In this document: piece by piece, positions 19,816 through 32,664 of the stretch
Layout of the letters: the number at the start of each line of letters is the position of its first letter
How positions within the stretch are numbered: the stretch's first letter is position 1
Assembly (NCBI GenBank): GCA_016867635.1
Contig: VGJC01000009.1
Location: 1-32,954 of the forward strand
Length of the DNA: 32,954 nucleotides
Reading direction: 5' to 3'
Origin: Candidatus Aminicenantota bacterium
GTDB taxonomy: Bacteria > Acidobacteriota > Aminicenantia > Aminicenantales > Saccharicenantaceae
Position numbers and translations under genes: made by a program
Notes under the pieces: model-generated
What the model saw: only the letters and a program-made list of their open reading frames with translations
What the model was told of the DNA's origin: nothing
Databases searched by the model: none

Positions 19816-21123
19816 ATGCATCTTCCGCCAGGTCTGCCGCGCCGCGATTTCTTCAAGTACCTTTTGGCCGGTTCAGCCGTCTCCGTGTCCGCTCTGGACG
19901 CGCTCAACGCGGGCATCGCCCAGAGCATCACGACGCTCAACCAGAAATTCCTGGACGACGAGGCGCCCGACGGCGTCTACTGGGAGGGGGTCCGGGATCT
20001 CTTCGAGTTCGAGGACCGGTTCATCATGATGAACAACGGGACCCTGGGCCCCATGCCCAAGCCCGTCTTCAACACCCTCATCCGTTACTTCCGCGTCCAG
20101 ATGACCAATCCTTACGACGGTTACAGCTACCTGCCGACGTTCAAAGAGTCCGTCCGGGCCAAGCTGGCGGCCTTCATCCACGCCTCGCCCGACGAGGTAT
20201 CCCTGACGACCAATACGACCGAAGGGGTCAACATCATCGTCCACGGGCTCGACCTCCGGGAGGGGGACGAGGTCCTCGTCACCAGCCTTGAACACCCCGG
20301 CCATATCAACCCCTGGATGCTCAGAGCGAAACGGCACGGGATCAAGGTCACCGAGGTGCCCATGCCGCTGTTCCCGAAGTCGGTCGAGGAGGTCGTCGCC
20401 GCCTTCGAGGCCGCCATCACCCCGCGGACCAGGATCATCAGCATCAGCCACACGGTGTTCATCACCGGCCTGATCATGCCGCTCAAGGAGCTGAGCCAAC
20501 TGGCCCACGACAAGGGGCTCCTCATCCTGGCCGACAGCGCCCACGGGCTGGGCATGATCGACCTCAACATGAAGGAGACGGGCGTCGATTTCTTCATGTC
20601 CAGCCCCTACAAGTGGCTCGGGGCCCCGACCGGGATCGGGCTCCTCTATGTCCGCAAAGAGGTCTTGGACAAGGTCTGGCCGACCATCGTGTCCTCCGGC
20701 TGGGAGACGAACAAGGCAGCCGGCAAGCTCGACCCCCAGGGGCAGCGGTCGGACGCTTTCGTCTTCGCCCTCGACGAGGCCCTCAATTTCCAGAACCGCA
20801 TCGGCCGGACGCGCATCGAGCGAAGGATCAAGGTCCTGGCCGGCCGCCTGAAACAGGAGCTGGCGAAGATACCGGGCGTCAAGGTCCACACGCCGGTCGA
20901 TCCTTATCTCAGCGCCGGGCTGACGGCTTTTTCGATGACGGGCGCCAATCCCGCCAAGCTCGTCGACTATCTTCGCGAGAAGCACAACTTGGTCGTGCGG
21001 ACGACCGGGAATCAGGCCGCCGGCACCTATGGCGTCCGGGTCTCCACCCCCATCTACATCTCGACGAAAGAGGTGGACATGGTCGTCGACGGGGTCAGGA
21101 CGCTCATGTCCCGCAAGGCCTGA
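19816..21123 (+). CDS. Class V aminotransferase (isopenicillin-N-epimerase / cysteine-desulfurase-like fold) with Tat-like signal
   Basis: MHLPPGLPRRDFFKYLLAGSAVSVSAL leader; TTNTTEGVNIIVHGLDLREGDEVLVTSLEHPGHINPW...ADSAHGLGMIDL...DFFMSSPYKWLGAPTGIGLLYVRKE (PLP lysine). Confidence 0.9.
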   Translation: MHLPPGLPRRDFFKYLLAGSAVSVSALDALNAGIAQSITTLNQKFLDDEAPDGVYWEGVRDLFEFEDRFIMMNNGTLGPMPKPVFNTLIRYFRVQMTNPYDGYSYLPTFKESVRAKLAAFIHASPDEVSLTTNTTEGVNIIVHGLDLREGDEVLVTSLEHPGHINPWMLRAKRHGIKVTEVPMPLFPKSVEEVVAAFEAAITPRTRIISISHTVFITGLIMPLKELSQLAHDKGLLILADSAHGLGMIDLNMKETGVDFFMSSPYKWLGAPTGIGLLYVRKEVLDKVWPTIVSSGWETNKAAGKLDPQGQRSDAFVFALDEALNFQNRIGRTRIERRIKVLAGRLKQELAKIPGVKVHTPVDPYLSAGLTAFSMTGANPAKLVDYLREKHNLVVRTTGNQAAGTYGVRVSTPIYISTKEVDMVVDGVRTLMSRKA

Positions 21124-21136
21124 TCGAAACCCCCGC

Positions 21137-21151
21137 GTAAACGAAATTTAC
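21137..21151 (+). promoter_or_regulatory. Putative activator site: inverted repeat GTAAA-N5-TTTAC
   Basis: GTAAACGAAATTTAC; shares the GTAAAC core with the 19172/19192 repeats. Confidence 0.45.
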
Positions 21152-21213
21152 AGCGGCGAAAGAGATTTTTTTCCACCGGTCCGTCGCTCCAGGGGAAAAC
21201 CTCCGTTCCCGTT

Positions 21214-21229
21214 TGGCACGAATTATGCT
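21214..21229 (+). promoter_or_regulatory. Sigma-54 (-24/-12) promoter, near consensus
   Basis: TTGGCACGAATTATGCTT; GG and GC 12 nt apart. Confidence 0.8.
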
Positions 21230-21239
21230 TCATCTCCGG

Positions 21240-21405
21240 GTGCGCGTGAGTGAGATGGCAACGACGGGTAACGGACAGAGCACCTTGAGGGACGGCTCGA
21301 TGGATGTTTTGTTAAGCCCCCATTCCCACAATACCCTTCCATAACCCTCCTTCTTTCAGTGACGGAGCGAGGGGCGCCGCGGGGGGCGCCCCTCCTCCCC
21401 TTTGT
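21240..21405 (+). ncRNA. Putative sigma-54-dependent small transcript (sRNA or 29-aa sORF mRNA), bounds inferred
   Basis: Bounded by the sigma-54 promoter (predicted +1 near 21240) and a strong GC hairpin (21369-21394). No long ORF convincingly explains it. Contains sORF 21255-21344. Confidence 0.35.
21369..21394 (+). terminator. Strong GC-rich stem-loop, terminator- or attenuator-like
   Basis: GAGGGGCGCC-gcgggg-GGCGCCCCTC, 10-bp perfect stem, followed by CTCCCCTTTGTCTC (weak U-tract). Confidence 0.45.
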
Positions 21406-21446
21406 CTCGCTTGCCCGAAGGGCAGGGACAGGGCCCGAAACGGGCG

Positions 21447-21476
21447 TTGACACGCCTTTCCTGGCGGGCCTATAAT
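21447..21476 (+). promoter_or_regulatory. Consensus sigma-70 promoter TTGACA-N18-TATAAT for the secreted paralogue operon
   Basis: Read directly; the spacer contains the dyad CGCC-TTTCCT-GGCG (21453-21466). Confidence 0.8.
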
Positions 21477-21600
21477 TCCCTCTAAGAAACACATGAGGGG
21501 AAAAACGCCTTCCGGCCGCCCTTCCGCGCGACTAAATAAGCTGAATGATGAGGCTATCTCCGCTCCGGAGCCCCTCTCGAGAAAACCGAAGGAGGACCGA

Positions 21601-23751
21601 ATGAACGCACCTTACCCCCGCTCCAGGGGTCGCGCGCGGCTCGTTATCCTGGCCGGCCTGATCCTGGCGGTCGTTTCGTCGTTGCCGGGCGCCGTCGTCT
21701 ACGATTTCGTCCAGAAAGCCCCCGAGGCCAAGTGGTCGAGATCTCTTTCCGCCCCCGGCGAGCTGCCCTGGAACGGCCGGGACAACGACGCCCGCGGTTT
21801 CGCCCGCCACCTGACGAACGCCGTTCTCGAGGACGGCAAGAGCTATGGGCTCGTCCTCCAGACCCATCCCGAATGGAAGAGCGAGGGGAGCGTCTTCGGG
21901 ACCTACGCGAACGTCCAGGTCCCGGCCGGGGCCAAGTTCGCCGCCCGGGTCGGCTTTCTCAAGAACGCGACGGCCACCGACGGCGTGACCTTCGCGGTCC
22001 ACGTCTTCGACCAGACGACGGGGGCGCTCCAACGGCTCGCGACGAAAGCGGCCCGCCATGACGGCGTCCTCGACGAGCTCACGGCCGATCTCGCGCCTTA
22101 CGCCGGCAAGACCGTGACCTTCCGCTTCGAGGTCCATGCCGGCGCGACGGCCCGCCAGGACTGGGCCGTCTGGGCCTCGGCCGCCATCACCCAGGAGCTC
22201 GCCCTCCAGCCCATGAAGGTCGCGGCCGCCAAGCCGGTGATGACGGCCAAGGTCGCGGCGCCTCCGGCTTCCGGGCCGATGATCCAGGCCTTCAAGCCCG
22301 CGGTCATCAAGCGGGTCACCCTGATGCCGATGGGAGCGGTCCCCCCGAAGCACAAGATCGAGGACGCCGGGACCCTGTCCGTCGAGGAGCCTCTGACCGT
22401 CCTCGACCGGATCTGGAAAGACAACGAGCGGGCGAACACCTATTACTACCTGCCCCGCGAGATCAACCTCATCCGGGAACCGTCCTCCGGGAACTACCGG
22501 GTCAGCGCCGTCTGGACCCAGGACCAGAAGATCCGCACGACCTTGGCCCTGCGGGCCAACATCGATCCGGCCGACGTCCGGATCCTCGACGAGGCCCTGA
22601 AGAAGGCCAAGGGGCCCCAGGCATCGCTCAGGTCCATGCCCTACGACGAGGCCAACATCATCGACATGAAGGGCTGGGAGGACTGGCAGATCGAGAATAT
22701 CCGCATCCCGACCTTCGGCTCCCTGGAGAGCGAGCTGCCCGTCAACATCAGCATGACCCCCGAAACGTTGGCCCAGCTGAAGCCGCTCCTCGAGAGGGAA
22801 GGACTGACGGCCGGCATGCGCCTCAAGACGGGCGACGTCGAGCGCGAGGTCCCCATCAAGGTCGGTCTGAAATACGCCACGGGCCGGATGTATTCCGATC
22901 TGAGCGACCTCGGCTACTCCTACAAGCGGTCCGAATCCCTGCTGACCCTCCACAACGTCCGGAACCTCTCGGCCTTCCCCCTCAAGATCAACTCCGTGAG
23001 CTTCCGCTTCCGGCTGCCGAACGGGGACGAGCTTTACAAAGATCTCAAACCGCAGACGGACGCCGTCCTGCCGGCCAACGGAACGGGATCCGTGACGGTC
23101 AGGCTCACGCCCCAGCCCCTGCTCGCGGCCGAGCTGGCCAGATCCCTGCCGGCGTCGAAGTCCGACGACAAGCCCGTCAACCCCCTGCTCAAGCAGGCCC
23201 TGGACAAGCTCAAGGGCGAGGTCGCCGAGAAGGCCGGGATCGACATCCCGGAAAAAGCCGAAGGTCTCGATCCCAAGGTCGACGAGTTCTTCAGATCGAG
23301 GGCCCGCAGCTTCTGGATGGAGGTCGTCCCCGACTTCGAATGCCAGGAATGCCTGGACGCGGTCTGGGACAAGATCGAGGTCGTCTCCTATATCGAGCGG
23401 ATGAGAAAGATCAACGTCGAAGCGCTGGCCAACGTCTTCGATCCGTCCGCGTACGAAAGCCCTATCGAGGTCGAGAAGGTCCACATCGAGATCCGTTCGC
23501 CGTACCTCAGCGCCCAGGCCAAGGACGGCTTGATGGCCGCCGTGGACCTCAACAAGGACAAGCTCCGGGAGGACGTCGTCGTCTACCTGCCGCGGTCGAG
23601 CGGCCAGACGCTCTCTTTCGACTATAAGATCAAGGTCATCCTGAAGACCGGCCAGTCCGCCGAGTCGGAGGCCTGGGAAACGGTCTCGGATTCCCTGGAC
23701 CTGACCCTGGGCACGTTCCACGTCGCCAAGGTCTTCGAGAGAACGGACTGA
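21601..23751 (+). CDS. Secreted protein of unknown function, paralogue-cluster member 1 (extra N-terminal beta-sandwich-like domain)
   Basis: SD AGGAGG before ATG 21601; signal peptide RLVILAGLILAVVSSLPGA. NTYYYLPREINLIREPSSGNYRVSAVWT and C-terminal VEKVHIEIRSPYLS..LREDVVVYLPRSSGQTLSFDYKIKVILKTG align with the cluster signatures. Confidence 0.8.
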   Translation: MNAPYPRSRGRARLVILAGLILAVVSSLPGAVVYDFVQKAPEAKWSRSLSAPGELPWNGRDNDARGFARHLTNAVLEDGKSYGLVLQTHPEWKSEGSVFGTYANVQVPAGAKFAARVGFLKNATATDGVTFAVHVFDQTTGALQRLATKAARHDGVLDELTADLAPYAGKTVTFRFEVHAGATARQDWAVWASAAITQELALQPMKVAAAKPVMTAKVAAPPASGPMIQAFKPAVIKRVTLMPMGAVPPKHKIEDAGTLSVEEPLTVLDRIWKDNERANTYYYLPREINLIREPSSGNYRVSAVWTQDQKIRTTLALRANIDPADVRILDEALKKAKGPQASLRSMPYDEANIIDMKGWEDWQIENIRIPTFGSLESELPVNISMTPETLAQLKPLLEREGLTAGMRLKTGDVEREVPIKVGLKYATGRMYSDLSDLGYSYKRSESLLTLHNVRNLSAFPLKINSVSFRFRLPNGDELYKDLKPQTDAVLPANGTGSVTVRLTPQPLLAAELARSLPASKSDDKPVNPLLKQALDKLKGEVAEKAGIDIPEKAEGLDPKVDEFFRSRARSFWMEVVPDFECQECLDAVWDKIEVVSYIERMRKINVEALANVFDPSAYESPIEVEKVHIEIRSPYLSAQAKDGLMAAVDLNKDKLREDVVVYLPRSSGQTLSFDYKIKVILKTGQSAESEAWETVSDSLDLTLGTFHVAKVFERTD

Positions 23752-23764
23752 GAAGGAGGCCCCC

Positions 23765-25438
23765 ATGCGTTCGCGTTTGACATCTATCGGAGGGATCGTT
23801 CTGGCCCTGCTCTTGACGGCCTCGATCGTCGAGGCCGAGGTCCTGCTCGACGCCGAGCCGATCCAGGCGGGCACCGTCCTGCTGTTCCGGGACCACGCCG
23901 ACGAGCACGGCTATCACTACATGCCGCTCTCGCCGCGGATCTCGGCCTGGCCCGACGGCACGCCCAAGTTCAGCTTCATCCAGTACGTCCGGACCGGCAA
24001 GGACATCACCGGCGGCATCCTCCATTTCCTGTGCACCTTCGGGCTGACGAAGGAGGAGCTGAACCAGGCCCAACGGGACCTGGCCCGGGTGGACAAGGAC
24101 GGCAAGATCCTCGGCCCCGTGATGTTCGTCAAGGGCGATTTCCACATCATCTCGGCGTCGGCCGGAGAGGGCGGGGTCTTCGCCCGCAAGGTCGCCGGCA
24201 CCGGCAAGGCCCCGCTCCTGGCGGGAACGGAGGCGGCCGTGTCCATCGCCCTGACCGAAGAGGGCTCGACCCTGCTCATGGAATCCTTCAACCAGCCGAC
24301 CTCCGATGTCTCCGTCCAGTTCGTCATGACCTACCAGGGCCTGACGCCGGCCTACAGGGCCATCCTGACCGTCGACTGGGACAAGGTCTACGACCATAAG
24401 GAGTTCAAGGCCGACGCCGGCAACTTCCTCGTCAGCGCCCAGATCCAGAAGATCTACGCCGAGCTGCGGGAGCAGGGCGCCATCAAGCTCGACGTCCTGG
24501 GCGAGGACACCAAGATGGACGAGCTGCTCGACACGGCCTACAACACCATCACCAAGATGATGTTCGACGCCAAGCCGGTCAAACCCGAGGACATCGGCAA
24601 GTCCCAGGCCTCGACCGGCGGCAACTGGCTGGGCAAGCTCTTCGGCCAGGCCCACTTCGGCTTCTATCAGAAGACGGTCAAGATGACCGGGAAATACACG
24701 GTCGACCTGACCCGCCGCAAGAGGGACCAGCGGGAGATCCCCCTGACCGGCAACATCGGCGGCCTCCACAAGACCCACGGGAAGAACCGCGACCTGTTCG
24801 CCGTGGTCGACCTCGACGACCCGACCTTCGAGGAGCGCACGGTCAACGTCATCCTCGACGGGGAGGACCTGGAGACCTTCAAGCAGTTCGTCAACTTCGC
24901 CGGGGTGACGTTCAAGAAGGAATACGAGGACGCCGACATGAAGTCGGTCACCGAGGACCTCGTCTTCGACAAGACGAAGTTCGGCCAGAACGGCAACAAG
25001 CTGTCGCTCAAGTACCGGCGCAAGGGCGACTCCACCGAGAAATGGCTGGAGTACGAGTACAAGCCGATGTGGAGCTACATCGGCGGCCTCGAGGTCGCCG
25101 GCGAGTGGCAGAAGACCTCCCAGCCGGTCATCACCCTGGCCCCGCCCCACAAGTACCGCTACATCGAGGTCCTGGCCGAAGAGGAGAACATGAGCGCCCA
25201 GGGCGTCATCCGGGTCGCCGTCCAGTTCCGGCACAGGAACTTCGGCCGCGAGCTCCAGAAGGAGGTCGTCCTCCGCAAGGGCGACCCCCTCAATGTCCAA
25301 TACGCCTACTTCCACGAGCCCAACAACCTCGAATACGAATACAACGTCACCTGGCTCCTGCGGGACAACACCCGGGTCTCGTCGGGCTGGAAGAAGGCGA
25401 CCGACCCCTTCGTTTACGCCTATTTCGAGAAGAATTAA
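23765..25438 (+). CDS. Secreted protein of unknown function, paralogue-cluster member 2
   Basis: Signal peptide MRSRLTSIGGIVLALLLTASIVEA; LLFRDHADEHGYHYMPLSPRISAWPDGTPKFSFIQYVRTG; AGEGGVFARKVAGTGKAPLL; C-terminal APPHKYRYIEVLAEEENM...YFHEPNNLEYEYNVTWLLRDNTRVSSGWKKATDPFVYAYF. Confidence 0.88.
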   Translation: MRSRLTSIGGIVLALLLTASIVEAEVLLDAEPIQAGTVLLFRDHADEHGYHYMPLSPRISAWPDGTPKFSFIQYVRTGKDITGGILHFLCTFGLTKEELNQAQRDLARVDKDGKILGPVMFVKGDFHIISASAGEGGVFARKVAGTGKAPLLAGTEAAVSIALTEEGSTLLMESFNQPTSDVSVQFVMTYQGLTPAYRAILTVDWDKVYDHKEFKADAGNFLVSAQIQKIYAELREQGAIKLDVLGEDTKMDELLDTAYNTITKMMFDAKPVKPEDIGKSQASTGGNWLGKLFGQAHFGFYQKTVKMTGKYTVDLTRRKRDQREIPLTGNIGGLHKTHGKNRDLFAVVDLDDPTFEERTVNVILDGEDLETFKQFVNFAGVTFKKEYEDADMKSVTEDLVFDKTKFGQNGNKLSLKYRRKGDSTEKWLEYEYKPMWSYIGGLEVAGEWQKTSQPVITLAPPHKYRYIEVLAEEENMSAQGVIRVAVQFRHRNFGRELQKEVVLRKGDPLNVQYAYFHEPNNLEYEYNVTWLLRDNTRVSSGWKKATDPFVYAYFEKN

Positions 25439-25441
25439 GTC

Positions 25442-26479
25442 ATGAACCGGGCAACGGCCGTCCTCGGGCTGCTGGTCCTGCTGGCGGGCATGGGCCTGTC
25501 GGCCGACCCGCTGCTGACCAGGCCGGAAACGGCCGGGGGGAGGATCATCATCTACCCCGACCACCGGGACCCCAAAGTGTTCTATTACGTGCCGGGGGAG
25601 CTCGTCCTGGCCCGGGCCTTCGGCTCTCCCCAGTTCTTCTTCTACAAGTACGTTTACGTCAAGCCCGACGCCCCCGAAGGACCTCAGACGCTGGCCGGAG
25701 GGGTCCTGACCCTGACGATCGAGTTCAAGGACGAGACCGAGGCCCTGAAGGCCCTGAAAGGGGCCTCGTTCGAGTTCCGGCCGGTGCCCATCGAGTCCAT
25801 GACCTGTGTCCTCGGATACCACCCTATCGAAGGCGGGCCGCAGGAAGAGCCCGGCGAGGAGCTGGCCCGGAAAAAGCTCCTGTGGACCCAAAAGAGCTTC
25901 ACCCTGCCCCTCAAGCGGGAGTCCGCTTCCTATCTCTGGGGCGTTTTCGAGGACAACAAGGCGGCCGGGCTGAGCGTCGACTGCGAATTCAGTTACGGCG
26001 GATATGAGCTCGACGACGAGGGCAAGCTCAAGGCCGGGGCCCGGGACGGACGGCTCTCGCTGGGCGTGCCCGTTTCCATGGCCGCCGATCCCGGTCTCTT
26101 CAAGCTGGTCAATCTAGCCGGCAAGATCGCCTTCAATTACCGGAAGCTGAGCGTCCTGTGCTTCGACTTCGTCAACGGCGCGAGCGGCGACCTGGCCAAG
26201 ATCACCGCCGAGATCGAGATCCTGACGGCCCGAAAGCAGCGGGACTTCAAGACGGTCTCGTTCACGGCCGATTCGGAGCCGCAGATGGACCTCGAGTTCG
26301 ACATCCCCGAAGCCAAGGGCGGCAAGTACCGCTACCGGCTGACCCGGGTCCGCACGGACGGCCGGTCCGAAAAAGGCGAGTGGACGGAGAGCGACGACAT
26401 GTTCCTCGACCTGTCCACCTACGATTTCTCTATCGATGACGGGAGCCGGAACGTTCCCGCCCAAGGAGGCCTGCGATGA
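25442..26479 (+). CDS. Secreted protein of unknown function, paralogue-cluster member 3 (compact form)
   Basis: Signal peptide MNRATAVLGLLVLLAGMGLSA; RIIIYPDHRDPKVFYYVPGELVLARAFGSPQFFFYKYVY is a reduced version of the cluster head; beta-rich C-terminus. Confidence 0.82.
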   Translation: MNRATAVLGLLVLLAGMGLSADPLLTRPETAGGRIIIYPDHRDPKVFYYVPGELVLARAFGSPQFFFYKYVYVKPDAPEGPQTLAGGVLTLTIEFKDETEALKALKGASFEFRPVPIESMTCVLGYHPIEGGPQEEPGEELARKKLLWTQKSFTLPLKRESASYLWGVFEDNKAAGLSVDCEFSYGGYELDDEGKLKAGARDGRLSLGVPVSMAADPGLFKLVNLAGKIAFNYRKLSVLCFDFVNGASGDLAKITAEIEILTARKQRDFKTVSFTADSEPQMDLEFDIPEAKGGKYRYRLTRVRTDGRSEKGEWTESDDMFLDLSTYDFSIDDGSRNVPAQGGLR

Positions 26480-29337
26480 AAAAGAATGCCAAGCTCACGA
26501 CCGTTCTTGCGGCGGCCCTTCTCGCCGGGGCGGTCCTGGCGTCCGCCGAAGTCGCCCTGGACGAGGTCGTCCAGGCGGGGCGGTTCGTCTTCTATCGGGA
26601 CCACGCCGACGCGCACAAGTATTACTACGTGCCCGACGCTCCGAGGCTGGCGACCAAAAGGGACGGCACGCCGGAGTTCACGTTCATCAAGTACACGAAG
26701 ACGGGCGGCGAGACGAGGGGCGGCGTCGTCCATTTCCTGGTGACCTGGGGCTACTCGAGCGGCGAGCTGAGCTCGGCCGAGGCCGTCCTGAAATCGACCG
26801 ACCCCCAGGCCAGGATCGCCGGCCCGGTGCCGTTCAAGGAGGGGACGTTCCAGGTCGTCTCGGCGACGGCGGGGGAGGGCGGGCTGTTCAGCCGGCGGAT
26901 CGTCGGCGAGGGCAAGGCGCCGATCATGCCCGGCCAGAAGGCGGCGGTGTCGATCGCTCTGACCGAAGAGGGGGCCTCGCTGCTCTGGGAATCGTTCAAG
27001 AACCCGACCTCGGACGTGTCGGTCCTATTCGCCCTGAAGTTCGCGGGGGTGACCCCGGCGTTCCAGGCCAAGCTGAAGGTCAACTGGGACAAGGTCTACA
27101 CGCATCACGATGTGCGGCTGCAGGCTGAGGGGACGATCAAGGTCGTCAAGCTGAAGGCCGAGATGCAGGCCATCCTGGACGACCTGCGGCAGAAGGGCGT
27201 CATCCAGCTCGATGTCGTGGGCGAGAACGAGAGCACGCAGAAGATGCTGGACGCGGTCTACACCCACATCCTCAACATGATGTGCGAGCCGGTGCCGATG
27301 GGGGCCGGGAGCGCGCCGGCGCCGCCGGTCAAGCCGCCGGCTACCGTCGCGGAGCTCGGCCCTCCGGACTGGTCGATGGGCGTGTTGAGCGACCTCGTCC
27401 GGACCTCGGGCGAACGGCTCCGCGGCGGCCCGTCCTGGGACCAGGAGCAGGCGACGACCGCCCGGACCGAGCCGCCATGCGATCCAGCCAGCAAAGCGAA
27501 ATGGACGCTTTTGAAGGCCGAAGGGGATGAGCTTGGAAGCAATAGAAATTTCCTGTTCGCGGCGCGGAAATATGAGGAAGCGTATGCCGTCTGCCCCATG
27601 CCGGAGACGCTGTACCGGATCGCGTCCTGCTACGACGTCATTCAGGAGTACGAAAAGGCCCGTAGTTCCTATGCCCGCTTCCTCCGGGAGGTGGGGGGGG
27701 CTCTCGGCGATGAAAGAGGAGCGAGAGCGACGACCAGGCTCTCGGTGGTAACCACGGCCGGCGCCGCCCTGATGGCCGGGAAGGACGCTCTTCGGCGGGG
27801 AGAGCTGAACGACGCGCTAGCGTTTTTCGAGGGCGCAGGAGGCACGGCTGGGAGCCTTGAAGCCCTCTACTATTCAGCTGTCACCTGCCGGGAGTTGGGC
27901 GACCGGACAAAAGATATTTCTTTTTATGAAAAAGCCCGGGAGCGATTCTCGTTGATGATCTCGATGTTCTCCGAGAATCCCTTTCTCAATGATAATCCGC
28001 TCCTTGAAAACCTGCGGATAAAGTCCCACTCCGAACTCGAAATCGTCGGCGCAAGAATGCAGCAGCTCAGATCGGCAACTCCTCCCGTCAAACCCGAGGG
28101 GCAGGCGGCGGCGACCGATACCGCGAGAACGGAGCAGACAACCGCCCAGATGGAAACCGCAAGGGCCCAGAGCCAGACCGCTGCCGAGGAGGCACGCCGG
28201 GCCCGAAGGGAGGCCGCCCAGGGCGGCGTCCAGGCCTCGCAGACCACGGCCCGGCAGGCCGAACAAGCAACGCAGCAGGCCGTTCAGGCGGAAACGGGCA
28301 AGCCGCCAGGCACGGTGGACGCAGGGACCAAACCGCCGACAGGCCAGGACGCGACGACGGCCCAGCTTGAGCAGCAAATCGCTTCCCTGCTGGGGTCCAA
28401 GCCTCCGGATGCGACGGGGGGCACGAAGCCGCCGACGACCCCGCCCCCCGCGGGCCAGACGCCTCCGGCCAAGCCGGCGGCCCAAACCCCAGCGGCCCCG
28501 GCGGCCAAACCCGCGGCCGCGGCGCCCGAGGTCAAGCCTATTGTCAGCGTGTCGCTCGGATACACGTTCAAGCGGGTTAAGATGTCGGGCAATTACGAGG
28601 TCGACATGCGCAAGCGGCTGCGCGAGGACCGGGACATCGTCATGAGCGGGAACATCAGCGGCGTCTTCCAGAAATACGGCGAGGACAAGCGGTTCTTCAC
28701 GGTCGTGAGCCTTGACGACCCGACCTTCCAGGAGCGTTCGGTCGAAGTCATCCTCGACGGGCAGGACGCCGAGGACTTCAAGAACTACATCAACACGGTG
28801 TCGGTCCTGTTCCGCAAGCAGCGCTTCTCGGGGGCGCCGATGACCGGCGAGGTCAAGTTCTTCGCCGACCAGTTCGCCCAGAGCGGGAACCGCCTGTCGT
28901 TCCGTTACGGACGCCTCAACGAGGCCTCGACGGAGTGGCTGACCTACGAGTACAAGCCGAAGTGGAGCTTCTACGGCGGGGTGGAGTGGGAAGGCGAGTG
29001 GACGAGGACCTCGGACTCGGTGCTGACGCTCGCGCCTCCGGTCCGGCGCCGGACGCTGGAGATCTCGGTCGACGAGGGCAACATCCTGAAGAACAGCGTC
29101 AAGGCCCTGGCCATCCAGGTCCGGAACCGGATCTACGGCAAGGACATCCTGAAGGAAGTGATCATCGACTACGACAAGGGCGACCCTCTGCAAGCGCGGT
29201 ACACGTACATGCACGAGGAGGGCAGCCCGGGCTACAGCTACAAGGTCATTTGGCTGACGACGGACGGCCGCGAGGTCGCGACCGACTGGATGAACCGGGA
29301 GAGCCCGTTCATCTACGCCGTCTTCACGGGGAAATAA
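26476..29337 (+). CDS. Secreted protein of unknown function, paralogue-cluster member 4, with inserted TPR-like and low-complexity segment
   Basis: ATGA overlap with member 3; FVFYRDHADAHKYYYVPDAPRLATKRDGTPEFTFIKYTKTG; AGEGGLFSRRIVGEGKAPIM; tail matches members 2 and 5; TPR-like ETLYRIASCYDVIQEYEKARSSYARFLRE. Confidence 0.88.
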   Translation: MKKNAKLTTVLAAALLAGAVLASAEVALDEVVQAGRFVFYRDHADAHKYYYVPDAPRLATKRDGTPEFTFIKYTKTGGETRGGVVHFLVTWGYSSGELSSAEAVLKSTDPQARIAGPVPFKEGTFQVVSATAGEGGLFSRRIVGEGKAPIMPGQKAAVSIALTEEGASLLWESFKNPTSDVSVLFALKFAGVTPAFQAKLKVNWDKVYTHHDVRLQAEGTIKVVKLKAEMQAILDDLRQKGVIQLDVVGENESTQKMLDAVYTHILNMMCEPVPMGAGSAPAPPVKPPATVAELGPPDWSMGVLSDLVRTSGERLRGGPSWDQEQATTARTEPPCDPASKAKWTLLKAEGDELGSNRNFLFAARKYEEAYAVCPMPETLYRIASCYDVIQEYEKARSSYARFLREVGGALGDERGARATTRLSVVTTAGAALMAGKDALRRGELNDALAFFEGAGGTAGSLEALYYSAVTCRELGDRTKDISFYEKARERFSLMISMFSENPFLNDNPLLENLRIKSHSELEIVGARMQQLRSATPPVKPEGQAAATDTARTEQTTAQMETARAQSQTAAEEARRARREAAQGGVQASQTTARQAEQATQQAVQAETGKPPGTVDAGTKPPTGQDATTAQLEQQIASLLGSKPPDATGGTKPPTTPPPAGQTPPAKPAAQTPAAPAAKPAAAAPEVKPIVSVSLGYTFKRVKMSGNYEVDMRKRLREDRDIVMSGNISGVFQKYGEDKRFFTVVSLDDPTFQERSVEVILDGQDAEDFKNYINTVSVLFRKQRFSGAPMTGEVKFFADQFAQSGNRLSFRYGRLNEASTEWLTYEYKPKWSFYGGVEWEGEWTRTSDSVLTLAPPVRRRTLEISVDEGNILKNSVKALAIQVRNRIYGKDILKEVIIDYDKGDPLQARYTYMHEEGSPGYSYKVIWLTTDGREVATDWMNRESPFIYAVFTGK
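27300..28527 (+). other. In-frame insertion (about 410 aa) within member 4: TPR-like then Ala/Pro/Gln/Thr-rich linker
   Basis: Member 2 has only about 30 aa at this point. Segment 27490-28070 also looks visibly less GC-rich than its flanks. Confidence 0.7.
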
Positions 29338-29373
29338 CGATACCGACGGACGATGACGACAAGGAGGACGACC

Positions 29374-31083
29374 ATGAGAAAGATCGCCGGAGCTCTGTTG
29401 ATCCCGCTCGTCGCGCTCGCGGCGCCGGCCTTCCTGGCCGCCGAGCTCGAGCTCGACTCGGCGCCGCTGCAGATCGGCAACGCCATCCTTTACAAGGACC
29501 ACTCCGAGGCCAACGCCTACTATTACATGCCCAACCAGCCGCGCCTGGCCTTCTGGCCCGACGGCACCCCCAAGCTGACCTTCCTCAAGTACACCAAGGC
29601 CGGCAAGGAGGACGCCAAGGGCGGCATCCTGCACTTCTTCGTCAAGTACGGCCTGACGGACCAGGAGCTGGCCAAGGTCCGGACCGACCTGGCCAAGCAG
29701 GTCCCGGGCGCCAAGCTCAAAGGCCCGGTGGTCTTCAAGAAAGGCACCTTTGTCGTCATCTCCGCCGCGGCCGGCGAGGGCGGGGCCTTCACCCGCAAGA
29801 TCCTCGGCGAAGGCAAGGCCCCGTTGATCACGGGCTCGGAAGTTTCGGTCTCGATCGCCGTGACGCCCGAAGGCGCGGCCTTCCTCGAAGAGGCCCTGCG
29901 CCAGCCGACCTATCCGGTCAGCGTCCGATTCGACATGACCTACGAAGGTCTGACCCCGAAATACCAGGCCAACGCGACCATCTCCTGGTCCAAGGCCCGG
30001 ACCTACTTCGAACAGTACAGGAAGTGGAAGATCTACAAGAAGAAAAAGCTCGGCATCTGGACCTGGTACGTCCACAAGGGCACGGGCGAGGAGCTCCAGA
30101 TCTCCGACGACCTCCGGTCGGCCGGCGCCGTGGCCATCGACGTCACCGGCGAGGACCAGAACATGGAAGCCATCCTGCAGACCGTGGTCGACCAGGTCAT
30201 GCGGGAGATGTTCGAGACCAAGATGGAGCTGCCCGGAGAAGGTCAGGAGGAAGGCGAGGGCGGCGGCCAGGAAGGGTCTCAACAAGCCCAGAACCGGCCC
30301 TACGGCGTCAGCACGACGATGAAGAGCGTCACCCGGTCCGACAACTGGACGGTCAACCTGACCAAGCGCCTGCGCCAGGAGCGCGAGACCGGGCCCATGG
30401 ACGCGGGCATCGGCGACACCCTGCGCAAGTTCAAGAGCAACAAGAAGGTCTACGACATCATCAACCTCGACGACCCGGACCTCCAGGACCGGACCGTCCA
30501 CGCCATCCTCGACGGCGAGGATTTCGATACCTTCAAGCGGTACATCAACTTCGTCACCGTCAGCTTCCGCAAGACCCACACCCAGGGCGAGCCGACGACG
30601 CGCGATCTCATCTTCAACGCCAAGTCCTTCGCCGAACAGGGCAACATGCTGGCGTTCGTCTACCCGCGCCTCGGCGAGGGGGCCAACTGGCTCAGCTACG
30701 AGTACAAGACGGCCTGGAGCTTCGTCGGCGGCATCAAGGTCGACGGCGACTGGACGCGCTCGGACGAAGCCGCCGTCAACCTCTTCCCGCCGCACCGCTA
30801 CCGGGAGGTCGATATCATCGCCGACGAGGACAACGTCCGGGCCCACAACATCAAGCTCATCACGGTCGGCTTCAAGAGCAGGATCTTCGACCGCGACAAG
30901 ACGGGCGAGGTCAAGATCCTGCCCTCCGAGACCCTGCTCACTAAGTATGAGTACGTCCACCAGGAGAACGACATGGGCTTCCAGTACCAGGTCACGTGGC
31001 TCCTGGGAGACGGCCGGCGTGTCGTCTCGGGCTGGAAGACGAGCACGGACCCGTTCGTCTACGCCCTGTACGAGGAGAAGTAG
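29374..31083 (+). CDS. Secreted protein of unknown function, paralogue-cluster member 5
   Basis: Signal peptide MRKIAGALLIPLVALAAPAFLAA; ILYKDHSEANAYYYMPNQPRLAFWPDGTPKLTFLKYTKAG; AGEGGAFTRKILGEGKAPLI; tail DMGFQYQVTWLLGDGRRVVSGWKTSTDPFVYALY. Confidence 0.88.
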   Translation: MRKIAGALLIPLVALAAPAFLAAELELDSAPLQIGNAILYKDHSEANAYYYMPNQPRLAFWPDGTPKLTFLKYTKAGKEDAKGGILHFFVKYGLTDQELAKVRTDLAKQVPGAKLKGPVVFKKGTFVVISAAAGEGGAFTRKILGEGKAPLITGSEVSVSIAVTPEGAAFLEEALRQPTYPVSVRFDMTYEGLTPKYQANATISWSKARTYFEQYRKWKIYKKKKLGIWTWYVHKGTGEELQISDDLRSAGAVAIDVTGEDQNMEAILQTVVDQVMREMFETKMELPGEGQEEGEGGGQEGSQQAQNRPYGVSTTMKSVTRSDNWTVNLTKRLRQERETGPMDAGIGDTLRKFKSNKKVYDIINLDDPDLQDRTVHAILDGEDFDTFKRYINFVTVSFRKTHTQGEPTTRDLIFNAKSFAEQGNMLAFVYPRLGEGANWLSYEYKTAWSFVGGIKVDGDWTRSDEAAVNLFPPHRYREVDIIADEDNVRAHNIKLITVGFKSRIFDRDKTGEVKILPSETLLTKYEYVHQENDMGFQYQVTWLLGDGRRVVSGWKTSTDPFVYALYEEK

Positions 31084-31092
31084 CGCCCGGCG

Positions 31093-32664
31093 TCAGCTGG
31101 CCTTGGGCGGGACGAAGCTCATGGCCCGCTCGGCGAGGGCGGTGATCGTCAGCGAGGGATTGACGCCCATGTTGGCGGGGACCGCCGATCCGTCGACGAC
31201 GTACATGTTCTCGTAGCCGAAGACGCGGTGGCGCGCGTCGACGACCCCGTGGTCCCGGTCCTGGCCGATGATGCAGCCGCCCAGGATGTGGGCCGTCATG
31301 GGCATGTTGAACAGGACCTCGGTCAGGGCGTTCTGGGGGATGGCGTCCATCCGCTCGGCCATGCCCCGCAGGGCCTGGTTGGCCTCGGGGATGTAAGTGG
31401 GGATCTTCTTCCCGCCGTTCTTCGAAGTCAGTCCTTTTCTGAAGAAGGCCCACCACCGGCGCTTCCTGGACACGGTCAGATAGTTGTCGAGCGTCTGCAT
31501 GACCAGCAGGATGACGCTGTTGCGGCCCCAGCCGAAGGGGATGCGGATCCTCAGGAACCGCAGCGGGTGGCGGAGGATCATGCCGACGGCCCTGAGCGGC
31601 CGTGGGATCTTGCCTCCGCCGTCGGTCATCAGCCCGGCGAACATCGACATGATGTCCGAGCCCTTGGGATAGCGGACGAGCTCGATGTGGGTCGAGTCGT
31701 TGACGAACACGCTCGAGGTGATGGATACGCCCAGGGAGTGCTGCTGGTTTTTCCTCGACGTCACTCCCGCCAGGACCTCGCTGTTGGTCCGGACGACGTG
31801 GCCCAGGCGGTCGGACAGGGCCGGCAAAGATCCGTTCTCTTTGCAGCGCATCAGCAGCTCGAGGGTCCCGAGGACGCCGGCGGCGAAGACGACGCCCTTG
31901 GCCCGCAGCGTGACCTTTCTCTTGAACACGACGTCGGTCGTTCTCTCGGCCATGACCAGGTATCCGCCGTCGCCGTCCGGTTTGACGTCGACGGCCTTAT
32001 GTTCGGGCACGATGCGGGCCCCGAGACGCTCGGCCAGGTAGAGGTAGTTACGGTCCAGGGAGTTCTTGCCGCCGTCCCGGCAGCCGACCATGCAGTGGCC
32101 GGTCATGGTGCAGCCGGTCCGGGCCGGCCCTTTCCCGCCGAAATAGGGGTCGGGGACCTCGACCCCGGGAGGGCCGAAGAACACGCCCACGTCGGTGGCC
32201 TTGAAATGCTCCTCCCGTCCGATCTCCCGGGCGTAGTCCCGGAGCATGTGGTCGGTCGGCCAGAACCGGGGGTTCTTGACGACCCCGAGCATCTGCTTGG
32301 CGGTTCGGTAATGAGGCGCGAGCTCGGTCTTCCAGTCGGGCGCGATCCCTTTCCATTGAGGGTCCTCGAAAAAGACATCGGGCGGCTCGAACAGAGTGTT
32401 GGCGTAGACCAGGCTTCCGCCGCCGACCCCGCTGCCGCCGAGAACGAGGGCATCGTTGAGCGGCCAGATCCGCTGGATCCCGAACGAGCGCAGGGCCGGG
32501 GCCCAGAGGAACTTCCAGAAGGCCCAGTTGGTCTTGGGGAAGTCCCGGCCCTGCCAGCGCCTGCCGCTCTCGACGACGCAGACCGAATGGCCTTTTTCGG
32601 CCAGCCGCAGCGCGGCGACGCTGCCGCCGAATCCCGATCCTATGACGACGTAGTCGCAGGTCAT
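31093..32664 (-). CDS. GMC-family FAD oxidoreductase (cholesterol-oxidase-like)
   Basis: MTCDYVVIGSGFGGSVAALRLAEKGHSVCVVESG; NDALVLGGSGVGGGSLVYANTLFEPP; C-terminal HILGGCIIGQD...YVVDGSAVPANMGVNPSLTITALAERAM. Start moved to 32664 because a promoter lies upstream. Confidence 0.92.
   Translation of the reverse strand: MTCDYVVIGSGFGGSVAALRLAEKGHSVCVVESGRRWQGRDFPKTNWAFWKFLWAPALRSFGIQRIWPLNDALVLGGSGVGGGSLVYANTLFEPPDVFFEDPQWKGIAPDWKTELAPHYRTAKQMLGVVKNPRFWPTDHMLRDYAREIGREEHFKATDVGVFFGPPGVEVPDPYFGGKGPARTGCTMTGHCMVGCRDGGKNSLDRNYLYLAERLGARIVPEHKAVDVKPDGDGGYLVMAERTTDVVFKRKVTLRAKGVVFAAGVLGTLELLMRCKENGSLPALSDRLGHVVRTNSEVLAGVTSRKNQQHSLGVSITSSVFVNDSTHIELVRYPKGSDIMSMFAGLMTDGGGKIPRPLRAVGMILRHPLRFLRIRIPFGWGRNSVILLVMQTLDNYLTVSRKRRWWAFFRKGLTSKNGGKKIPTYIPEANQALRGMAERMDAIPQNALTEVLFNMPMTAHILGGCIIGQDRDHGVVDARHRVFGYENMYVVDGSAVPANMGVNPSLTITALAERAMSFVPPKAS

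What the first reader, a model, noticed from the sequence alone, without database searches (positions are those of the whole stretch)
21601..31083. Five-gene operon of secreted, mutually homologous proteins of unknown function
Five consecutive same-strand ORFs with gaps of 13, 3, -4 and 36 nt each begin with a signal peptide. Members 2, 4 and 5 share a clear head ([FY]xDHx[DE]xxxYxYxPxxPR[LI][AS]xxxDGTPxF[ST]F[IL][KQ]Y), an AGEGGxF[AST]R[KR][IV]xGxGKAP loop, PTxxVSVxF, a (V/I)xLDDPxxxxR[ST]V.xILDG[EQ]DxxxFKxx[IV]N module and a YxVxWLxxDxRxVxxxWxxxxxPF[IV]YAxF tail. Members 1 and 3 keep diverged versions of head (YYYLP / FYYVP) and tail. I cannot name any characterised family for this. Tandem diversification with co-transcription suggests a hetero-oligomeric surface or periplasmic assembly.
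Basis: partly seen in the sequence, partly recalled or inferred. Interest (0 to 1): 0.85.

Follow-up and report, generated by a model that had tools for sequence, protein, structure and literature searches.

The report
Secreted five-subunit operon, unknown protein family
A little-studied uncultured bacterium carries a five-gene operon of related exported proteins that match no described family, are kept together as distinct single-copy parts in distant bacteria, and include one part that looks built to grip sugars, so they probably form one multi-part machine at the cell surface.

Summary
All five ORFs carry Sec-type signal peptides, a perfect 12/12 sigma-70 promoter lies just upstream, and an iterated profile joins all five (member 1 E=5e-23, member 3 E=5e-70). 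No member reaches a Pfam, NCBIfam, PADLOC or PHROGs family or a PDB sequence. An AlphaFold model of member 2 (pLDDT 83) has no full-length match among solved structures. The fold is a unique head plus two duplicated Ig-like domains. Member 1 adds a carbohydrate-binding-module-like jelly roll that is a separate first gene in other Acidobacteriota (E=1e-40); Flavivirga has ricin lectins there. Members 2, 4 and 5 form three single-copy clades that mirror each other. The family also occurs as signal-less tandem arrays, often abutting hydrolase genes on the same strand: subtilases, trypsin+EAD1+STAND, caspases; other relatives abut papain+chagasin, a C70 protease or a PG amidase. Best reading: one hetero-oligomeric, glycan-targeted extracytoplasmic complex, probably used in biological conflict. 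The complex is supported by comparative evidence; the function is inferred, and no protein interaction was tested.

The parts
21447..21476 (+). perfect sigma-70 promoter TTGACA-N18-TATAAT
   Evidence: 12/12 match, only site found; shuffles average 0.9 sites of >=9/12
21601..23751 (+). member 1 (716 aa): signal peptide, CBM-like jelly roll, diverged head and tail modules, invariant CxxC
21628..22188 (+). member 1 carbohydrate-binding-module-like domain
   Evidence: Foldseek hits to CBM61/CBM4/CBM22; homologous to a separately encoded secreted protein in other Acidobacteriota, E=9.7e-41
22411..22653 (+). member 1 head-module match (family profile 33-117)
23341..23352 (+). member 1 CxxC, invariant down to Bacteroidota
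   Evidence: alignment A3, C569 and C572 invariant
23398..23691 (+). member 1 tail-module match (family profile 457-541)
23765..25438 (+). member 2 (557 aa): signal peptide, head domain, two Ig-like domains
   Evidence: AF2 model pLDDT 82.9; mid and tail duplicated, hhalign prob 96, E=3e-9
25442..26479 (+). member 3 (345 aa): signal peptide, head (profile 3-186) + one tail domain
   Evidence: E=4.9e-70
26476..29337 (+). member 4 (953 aa): as member 2 with an inserted TPR and low-complexity linker
27328..28550 (+). approximate extent of the member 4 insert (TPR, then Ala/Pro/Gln-rich linker)
   Evidence: gap in alignment A1; weak Pfam TPR_6 match; profile matches TPR proteins beside relatives
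29353..31083 (+). member 5 (576 aa; alternative start 29374): signal peptide, head, two Ig-like domains

Best explanation
The operon encodes the non-interchangeable subunits of one exported hetero-oligomeric complex. Members 2, 4 and 5 (and the short member 3) are scaffold subunits made of a family-specific head domain followed by one or two Ig-like beta-sandwiches. Member 1 is the targeting subunit, whose CBM-like domain binds a glycan on a neighbouring or own surface. The TPR insert of member 4 is a docking arm. The complex most likely serves biological conflict between cells: it binds a target surface and presents, or is triggered by, hydrolytic partners, which many relatives encode in the same gene cluster and this lineage must supply from elsewhere. 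Shown: genes, export signals, homology, domain fusion, subfamily trees, promoter-like site. Inferred from a structure prediction: sugar-binding fold. Inferred: heteromer, glycan binding in fact, conflict role.
For: Single-copy, mutually congruent clades for operon positions 2, 4 and 5 in seven genomes, and Bacteroidota subfamilies with G180 orthologues. Same gene order in all complete Aminicenantes loci, six genes only where member 4 is duplicated. CBM-like domain by Foldseek and as a separate first gene elsewhere; ricin-type lectin repeats in the Flavivirga member 1 counterpart. Only one family locus in the genome. Patchy presence: 10 of 40 relatives, 7 of 297 in the phylum sample, 5 of 346 in Bacteroidota including the centre genome. 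Same-strand hydrolases within about 60 nt of family genes: subtilases in G264 and G727, caspases in G429 and papain plus chagasin in G611, Peptidase_C70 in Bacteroidales, Amidase_2 in G717; in Paracoccus trypsin-EAD1, EAD1 and STAND genes precede the array and a PLD gene follows it.
Against: No protease, hydrolase or immunity gene sits in or next to the operon in Aminicenantes, so the conflict role is carried over from relatives 20-30% identical. Physical interaction was not tested. The member 1 model is low confidence overall (pLDDT 64.6), though most of its jelly-roll part is 75-89. Peptidase genes are common, so some adjacencies may be chance; no genome-wide baseline was computed.
Confidence: 0.45

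Rival explanations
1. A structural surface layer or fibre: the Ig-like subunits polymerise into an appendage or coat and the CBM-like subunit anchors it to the cell's own polysaccharide; no conflict role.
For: Tandem Ig-like architecture; weak Foldseek hits to pilins and Bacteroides adhesins with probability near 1; no enzymes in the Aminicenantes operon.
Against: TM-scores to pilins and adhesins are only 0.17-0.29; patchy presence inside one genus is unusual for a core surface layer; signal-less relatives cannot be surface layers by Sec export.
Confidence: 0.25
2. A protease-triggered membrane-damaging effector array, analogous to gasdermins: cleavage between head and Ig tails frees the head to oligomerise in membranes.
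For: Proteases of five families adjoin family genes in relatives; head + removable tail architecture; caspase, EAD1 and STAND neighbours.
Against: No pore-forming fold among the best matches; no protease beside the window's operon; papain + chagasin and PG amidase neighbours fit effectors better than activators.
Confidence: 0.12
3. A glycan-capture apparatus for growth on polysaccharides in saccharolytic Aminicenantes.
For: CBM-like and lectin domains in member 1 and its Flavivirga counterpart.
Against: No glycoside hydrolase or sugar transporter was recognised travelling with the operon; only one subunit looks sugar-binding; signal-less relatives exist.
Confidence: 0.12
4. Independent secreted paralogues that share an operon but do not associate.
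For: Tandem duplication alone can give this; unequal rates (members 2/5 about 82-85% identical to the nearest operon, 1/3/4 about 61-68%).
Against: Fixed order, no loss of single positions in complete loci, congruent clades, module fusion.
Confidence: 0.06

Closest known systems
EAD / STAND / protease conflict systems (Kaur et al. 2020, PMC7159879)
   Same: Signal-less family arrays on a Paracoccus plasmid sit directly downstream of EAD1-trypsin, EAD1 and STAND-like genes; caspases and subtilases adjoin other arrays
   Different: The window's operon has none of these; the family was not seen among their components in the passages read; the window proteins are exported
Bacterial gasdermin operons (cf. 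PMC9079055)
   Same: Relatives pair a non-enzymatic multi-copy protein with caspase, subtilase or trypsin genes
   Different: No Pfam or fold match to gasdermin; tandem Ig-like tails; many paralogues per cluster; export signals
Ig-like pilins and fimbrillin-like adhesins (3gle, 3up6)
   Same: Stacked beta-sandwich domains in an exported protein
   Different: Unique head domain; target TM-score only 0.26-0.29; sorting or donor-strand features not tested
CBM4/22/61-type carbohydrate-binding modules
   Same: Jelly-roll model of the member 1 N-terminal domain, TMt up to 0.67
   Different: No significant sequence match to a CBM family (NPCBM E=0.11); attached to a non-enzymatic family

Membership tests
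Gasdermin | gasdermin sequence family or pore-forming fold | tested here: not met
   no Pfam hit for the five proteins or 16 diverse family members; no gasdermin in the Foldseek PDB top hits
Gasdermin | activating protease encoded next to it | tested here: not met
   none in the window or in Aminicenantes loci; present only beside distant relatives
EAD/STAND conflict systems | core NTPase plus EAD-linked effector in the cluster | tested here: not met
   absent around the window operon; present only in Paracoccus L079
Known anti-phage defence systems (PADLOC) | component profile match | tested here: not met
   only E=0.024 noise for one member
Pilin / fimbrillin-like adhesins | full-length fold match | tested here: not met
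   TMt at most 0.29 over part of the model
Pilin / fimbrillin-like adhesins | assembly signal (sorting motif, donor strand) | not tested
   not examined
Carbohydrate-binding module (member 1 N-terminus) | beta jelly-roll fold of a CBM | tested here: met
   Foldseek to CBM61 2xom TMt 0.67, CBM4-2 1k42 0.53, CBM22 4xup 0.55, from a predicted region mostly pLDDT 75-89
Carbohydrate-binding module (member 1 N-terminus) | sugar binding | not testable with these tools
   needs a binding assay
Phage structural proteins (PHROGs) | profile match or presence in phages | tested here: not met

The most novel reading that the evidence does not exclude
A previously undescribed class of modular multi-subunit machine, with an exported glycan-targeted form and a cytoplasmic form plugged into caspase/subtilase/STAND immune circuits, spread across Acidobacteriota, Bacteroidota and Pseudomonadota and carrying exchangeable hydrolases.
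Probability: 0.3. Interest if true: 0.88.

Novelty: categorically new. Interest (0 to 1): 0.64.

Why it matters
A multi-gene protein family with no entry in Pfam, NCBIfam, PADLOC or PHROGs and no full-length structural match is conserved as a set of distinct subunits and has relatives in three phyla. If it forms one complex it is a new kind of secreted assembly; if the conflict reading holds, it links exported lectin-bearing assemblies to bacterial counterparts of inflammasome-type protease circuits. The profile and domain map given here make both questions directly testable. 'Categorically new' refers to family and system; the function could still turn out to be of a known type, and AlphaFold DB and HHpred were not available.

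Tried and rejected
Whole-chain Foldseek hits to CD109, complement and alpha-2-macroglobulin rejected as chance tandem-Ig alignments (TMq about 0.1, rmsd about 30). Viral library gave mostly Ig/FnIII proteins. Weak Pfam hits (SASP, LEA_2, DUF7352, NPCBM) are all below curated cut-offs. Phage records and viral contigs: no relatives. G010, which shows only the last 24 codons of member 5, first looked like a deletion scar, but the site is a scaffold gap of Ns between the same flanking genes, so the operon is probably unassembled there. Internal duplication of the head was suspected from secondary structure, but profile comparison aligned only the 10 residues the two segments shared by construction, so it is not claimed. 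The flanking aminotransferase and GMC oxidoreductase genes are not taken as functional partners: they are not next to the operon in most relatives.

Full report
Observation. The window carries five consecutive + strand ORFs at 21601-23751, 23765-25438, 25442-26479, 26476-29337 and 29353-31083. The ORF list starts the first at 21493, but the signal peptide begins at 21601 and orthologues agree. Every N-terminus has the form of a Sec signal peptide with an AxA-like site, by a simple heuristic. The only sigma-70-like site in 21100-31200 is a perfect TTGACA-N18-TATAAT at 21447-21476. Third codon positions are the most divergent against the closest operon, so all five look like genes under purifying selection; members 2 and 5 are best conserved (82-85% identical), members 1, 3 and 4 less so (61-68%).

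Homology. Members 2, 4 and 5 align over their length at about 41% identity. A profile iterated on related loci recovers member 3 at E=4.9e-70 and member 1 at E=5e-23, each as a head segment plus a tail segment. The genome has no other copy.

No known family. No member reaches any Pfam or NCBIfam cut-off; 16 diverse relatives, scanned one by one, give nothing significant in Pfam or PHROGs; PADLOC gives noise; no PDB sequence matches member 5 or the family profile.

Fold. An AlphaFold model of mature member 2 with 60 aligned sequences reaches pLDDT 82.9, pTM 0.60. It has a mixed alpha/beta head (about residues 1-245 of the mature protein), a poorly predicted linker, and two beta domains. Profile comparison shows that the two beta domains are duplicates (hhalign prob 96, E=3e-9 over 96 columns). 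Foldseek finds only partial matches, to Ig/FnIII, pilin and adhesin proteins among solved structures, with query TM-score up to 0.18, and up to 0.22 in the viral library. Searching the head alone was not possible with the jobs left. Member 4 has an insert of about 400 residues between head and tail with TPR and a low-complexity linker.

Member 1. Its N-terminal domain models as a jelly roll close to CBM61, CBM4-2 and CBM22 and to Eph ligand-binding domains (TMt up to 0.67). The same domain is the C-terminal part of a separately encoded exported protein that lies just upstream in four other Acidobacteriota (G180, G680, G699, G734; E=9.7e-41). Fusion in one lineage and separation in another is a classic sign of partners in one complex. 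In Flavivirga the member 1 counterpart carries ricin-type lectin repeats (RicinB_lectin_2 E=3.8e-61). A CxxC in member 1 is invariant from Aminicenantes to Bacteroidales.

Distribution and trees. A match occurs in 10 of 40 nearest genomes, 7 of 297 across the phylum sample, 8 of 148 in the class of G264 including G264 itself, and 5 of 346 in Bacteroidota including the genome used as centre. In a 54-row tree, members 2, 4 and 5 form three clades, each with one row per genome and with the same main branching, and together they are one clade restricted to the Aminicenantes-type loci; Bacteroidota positions form their own clades, two of them joined by G180 genes at support 100 (SH-aLRT only). All exported members in the tree form one clade against the signal-less ones (support 100; long branches noted). 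Complete Aminicenantes loci keep the order 1-2-3-4-5, with member 4 doubled in L018/G019. The neighbours differ between loci, so the five genes are the unit. In the window's own genus the operon lies after an aminotransferase gene in G007, G011 and probably G010, and no family gene was found at that place in G009.

Relatives without signal peptides. G264, G727, G429 and Alphaproteobacterial plasmids carry tandem arrays of the family that start directly at the head (for representatives), most with extra copies of the tail region. Their same-strand neighbours include two subtilases in G264 (the nearer 4 nt from a family gene) and one in G727, two caspases in G429 (the nearer at 12 nt), and trypsin-EAD1, EAD1, STAND-like ATPase and PLD genes in Paracoccus. 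A shorter relative in G611 follows a papain-family protease and a chagasin-family inhibitor, which looks like an effector and its immunity protein; a muramidase with PG_binding is two genes from its counterpart in G527. Exported clusters add a papain-like Peptidase_C70 in two Bacteroidales (7-10 nt; Pfam tested on one) and an N-acetylmuramoyl-L-alanine amidase overlapping the last family gene by 4 nt in G717. I did not compute how often this would occur by chance.

Interpretation. Shown: a real operon of five exported homologues, outside described families, with fixed order, single-copy subfamilies and a fused sugar-binding-like module. Inferred with fair support: one heteromeric complex, member 1 as targeting subunit. 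Inferred with weaker support: a role in conflict between cells, taken from hydrolase, protease and immunity-like neighbours in relatives. EAD1 modules are described as recruiting effectors in bacterial conflict systems (PMC7159879), which fits the Paracoccus locus but was not seen near the window. The strongest caution is that the Aminicenantes operon itself encodes no recognised enzyme, so a structural or glycan-binding role remains open.

Noticed in passing
L117:7561-8829: Papain-family peptidase gene followed at 12 nt by a chagasin-family (I42) inhibitor gene, just upstream of a family gene: looks like an effector-immunity pair.
   Followed up: partly
L079:6963-11850: Plasmid-borne EAD1-trypsin, EAD1 and STAND-like ATPase genes overlapping each other, directly before a four-gene family array and a PLD gene.
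   Followed up: partly
L018:5076-10771: Member 4 is duplicated in tandem, giving a six-gene operon; both copies keep the TPR insert.
   Followed up: no
L024:9571-10338 and L025:11048-11800: Conserved 250-aa exported protein of no Pfam family inside the Bacteroidales clusters.
   Followed up: no
L034:1440-1570: Scaffold gap of Ns in G010 exactly where the operon should be, leaving the last codons of member 5; presence tables would count it as nearly absent.
   Followed up: yes
window:16360-19160: Histidine kinase and NtrC-type response regulator genes (by eye) upstream of the aminotransferase gene that precedes the operon; a possible regulator, not tested.
   Followed up: no
window:11206-12475: Exported protein with a twin-arginine-like N-terminus (by eye) on the + strand, unrelated to the finding.
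   Followed up: no
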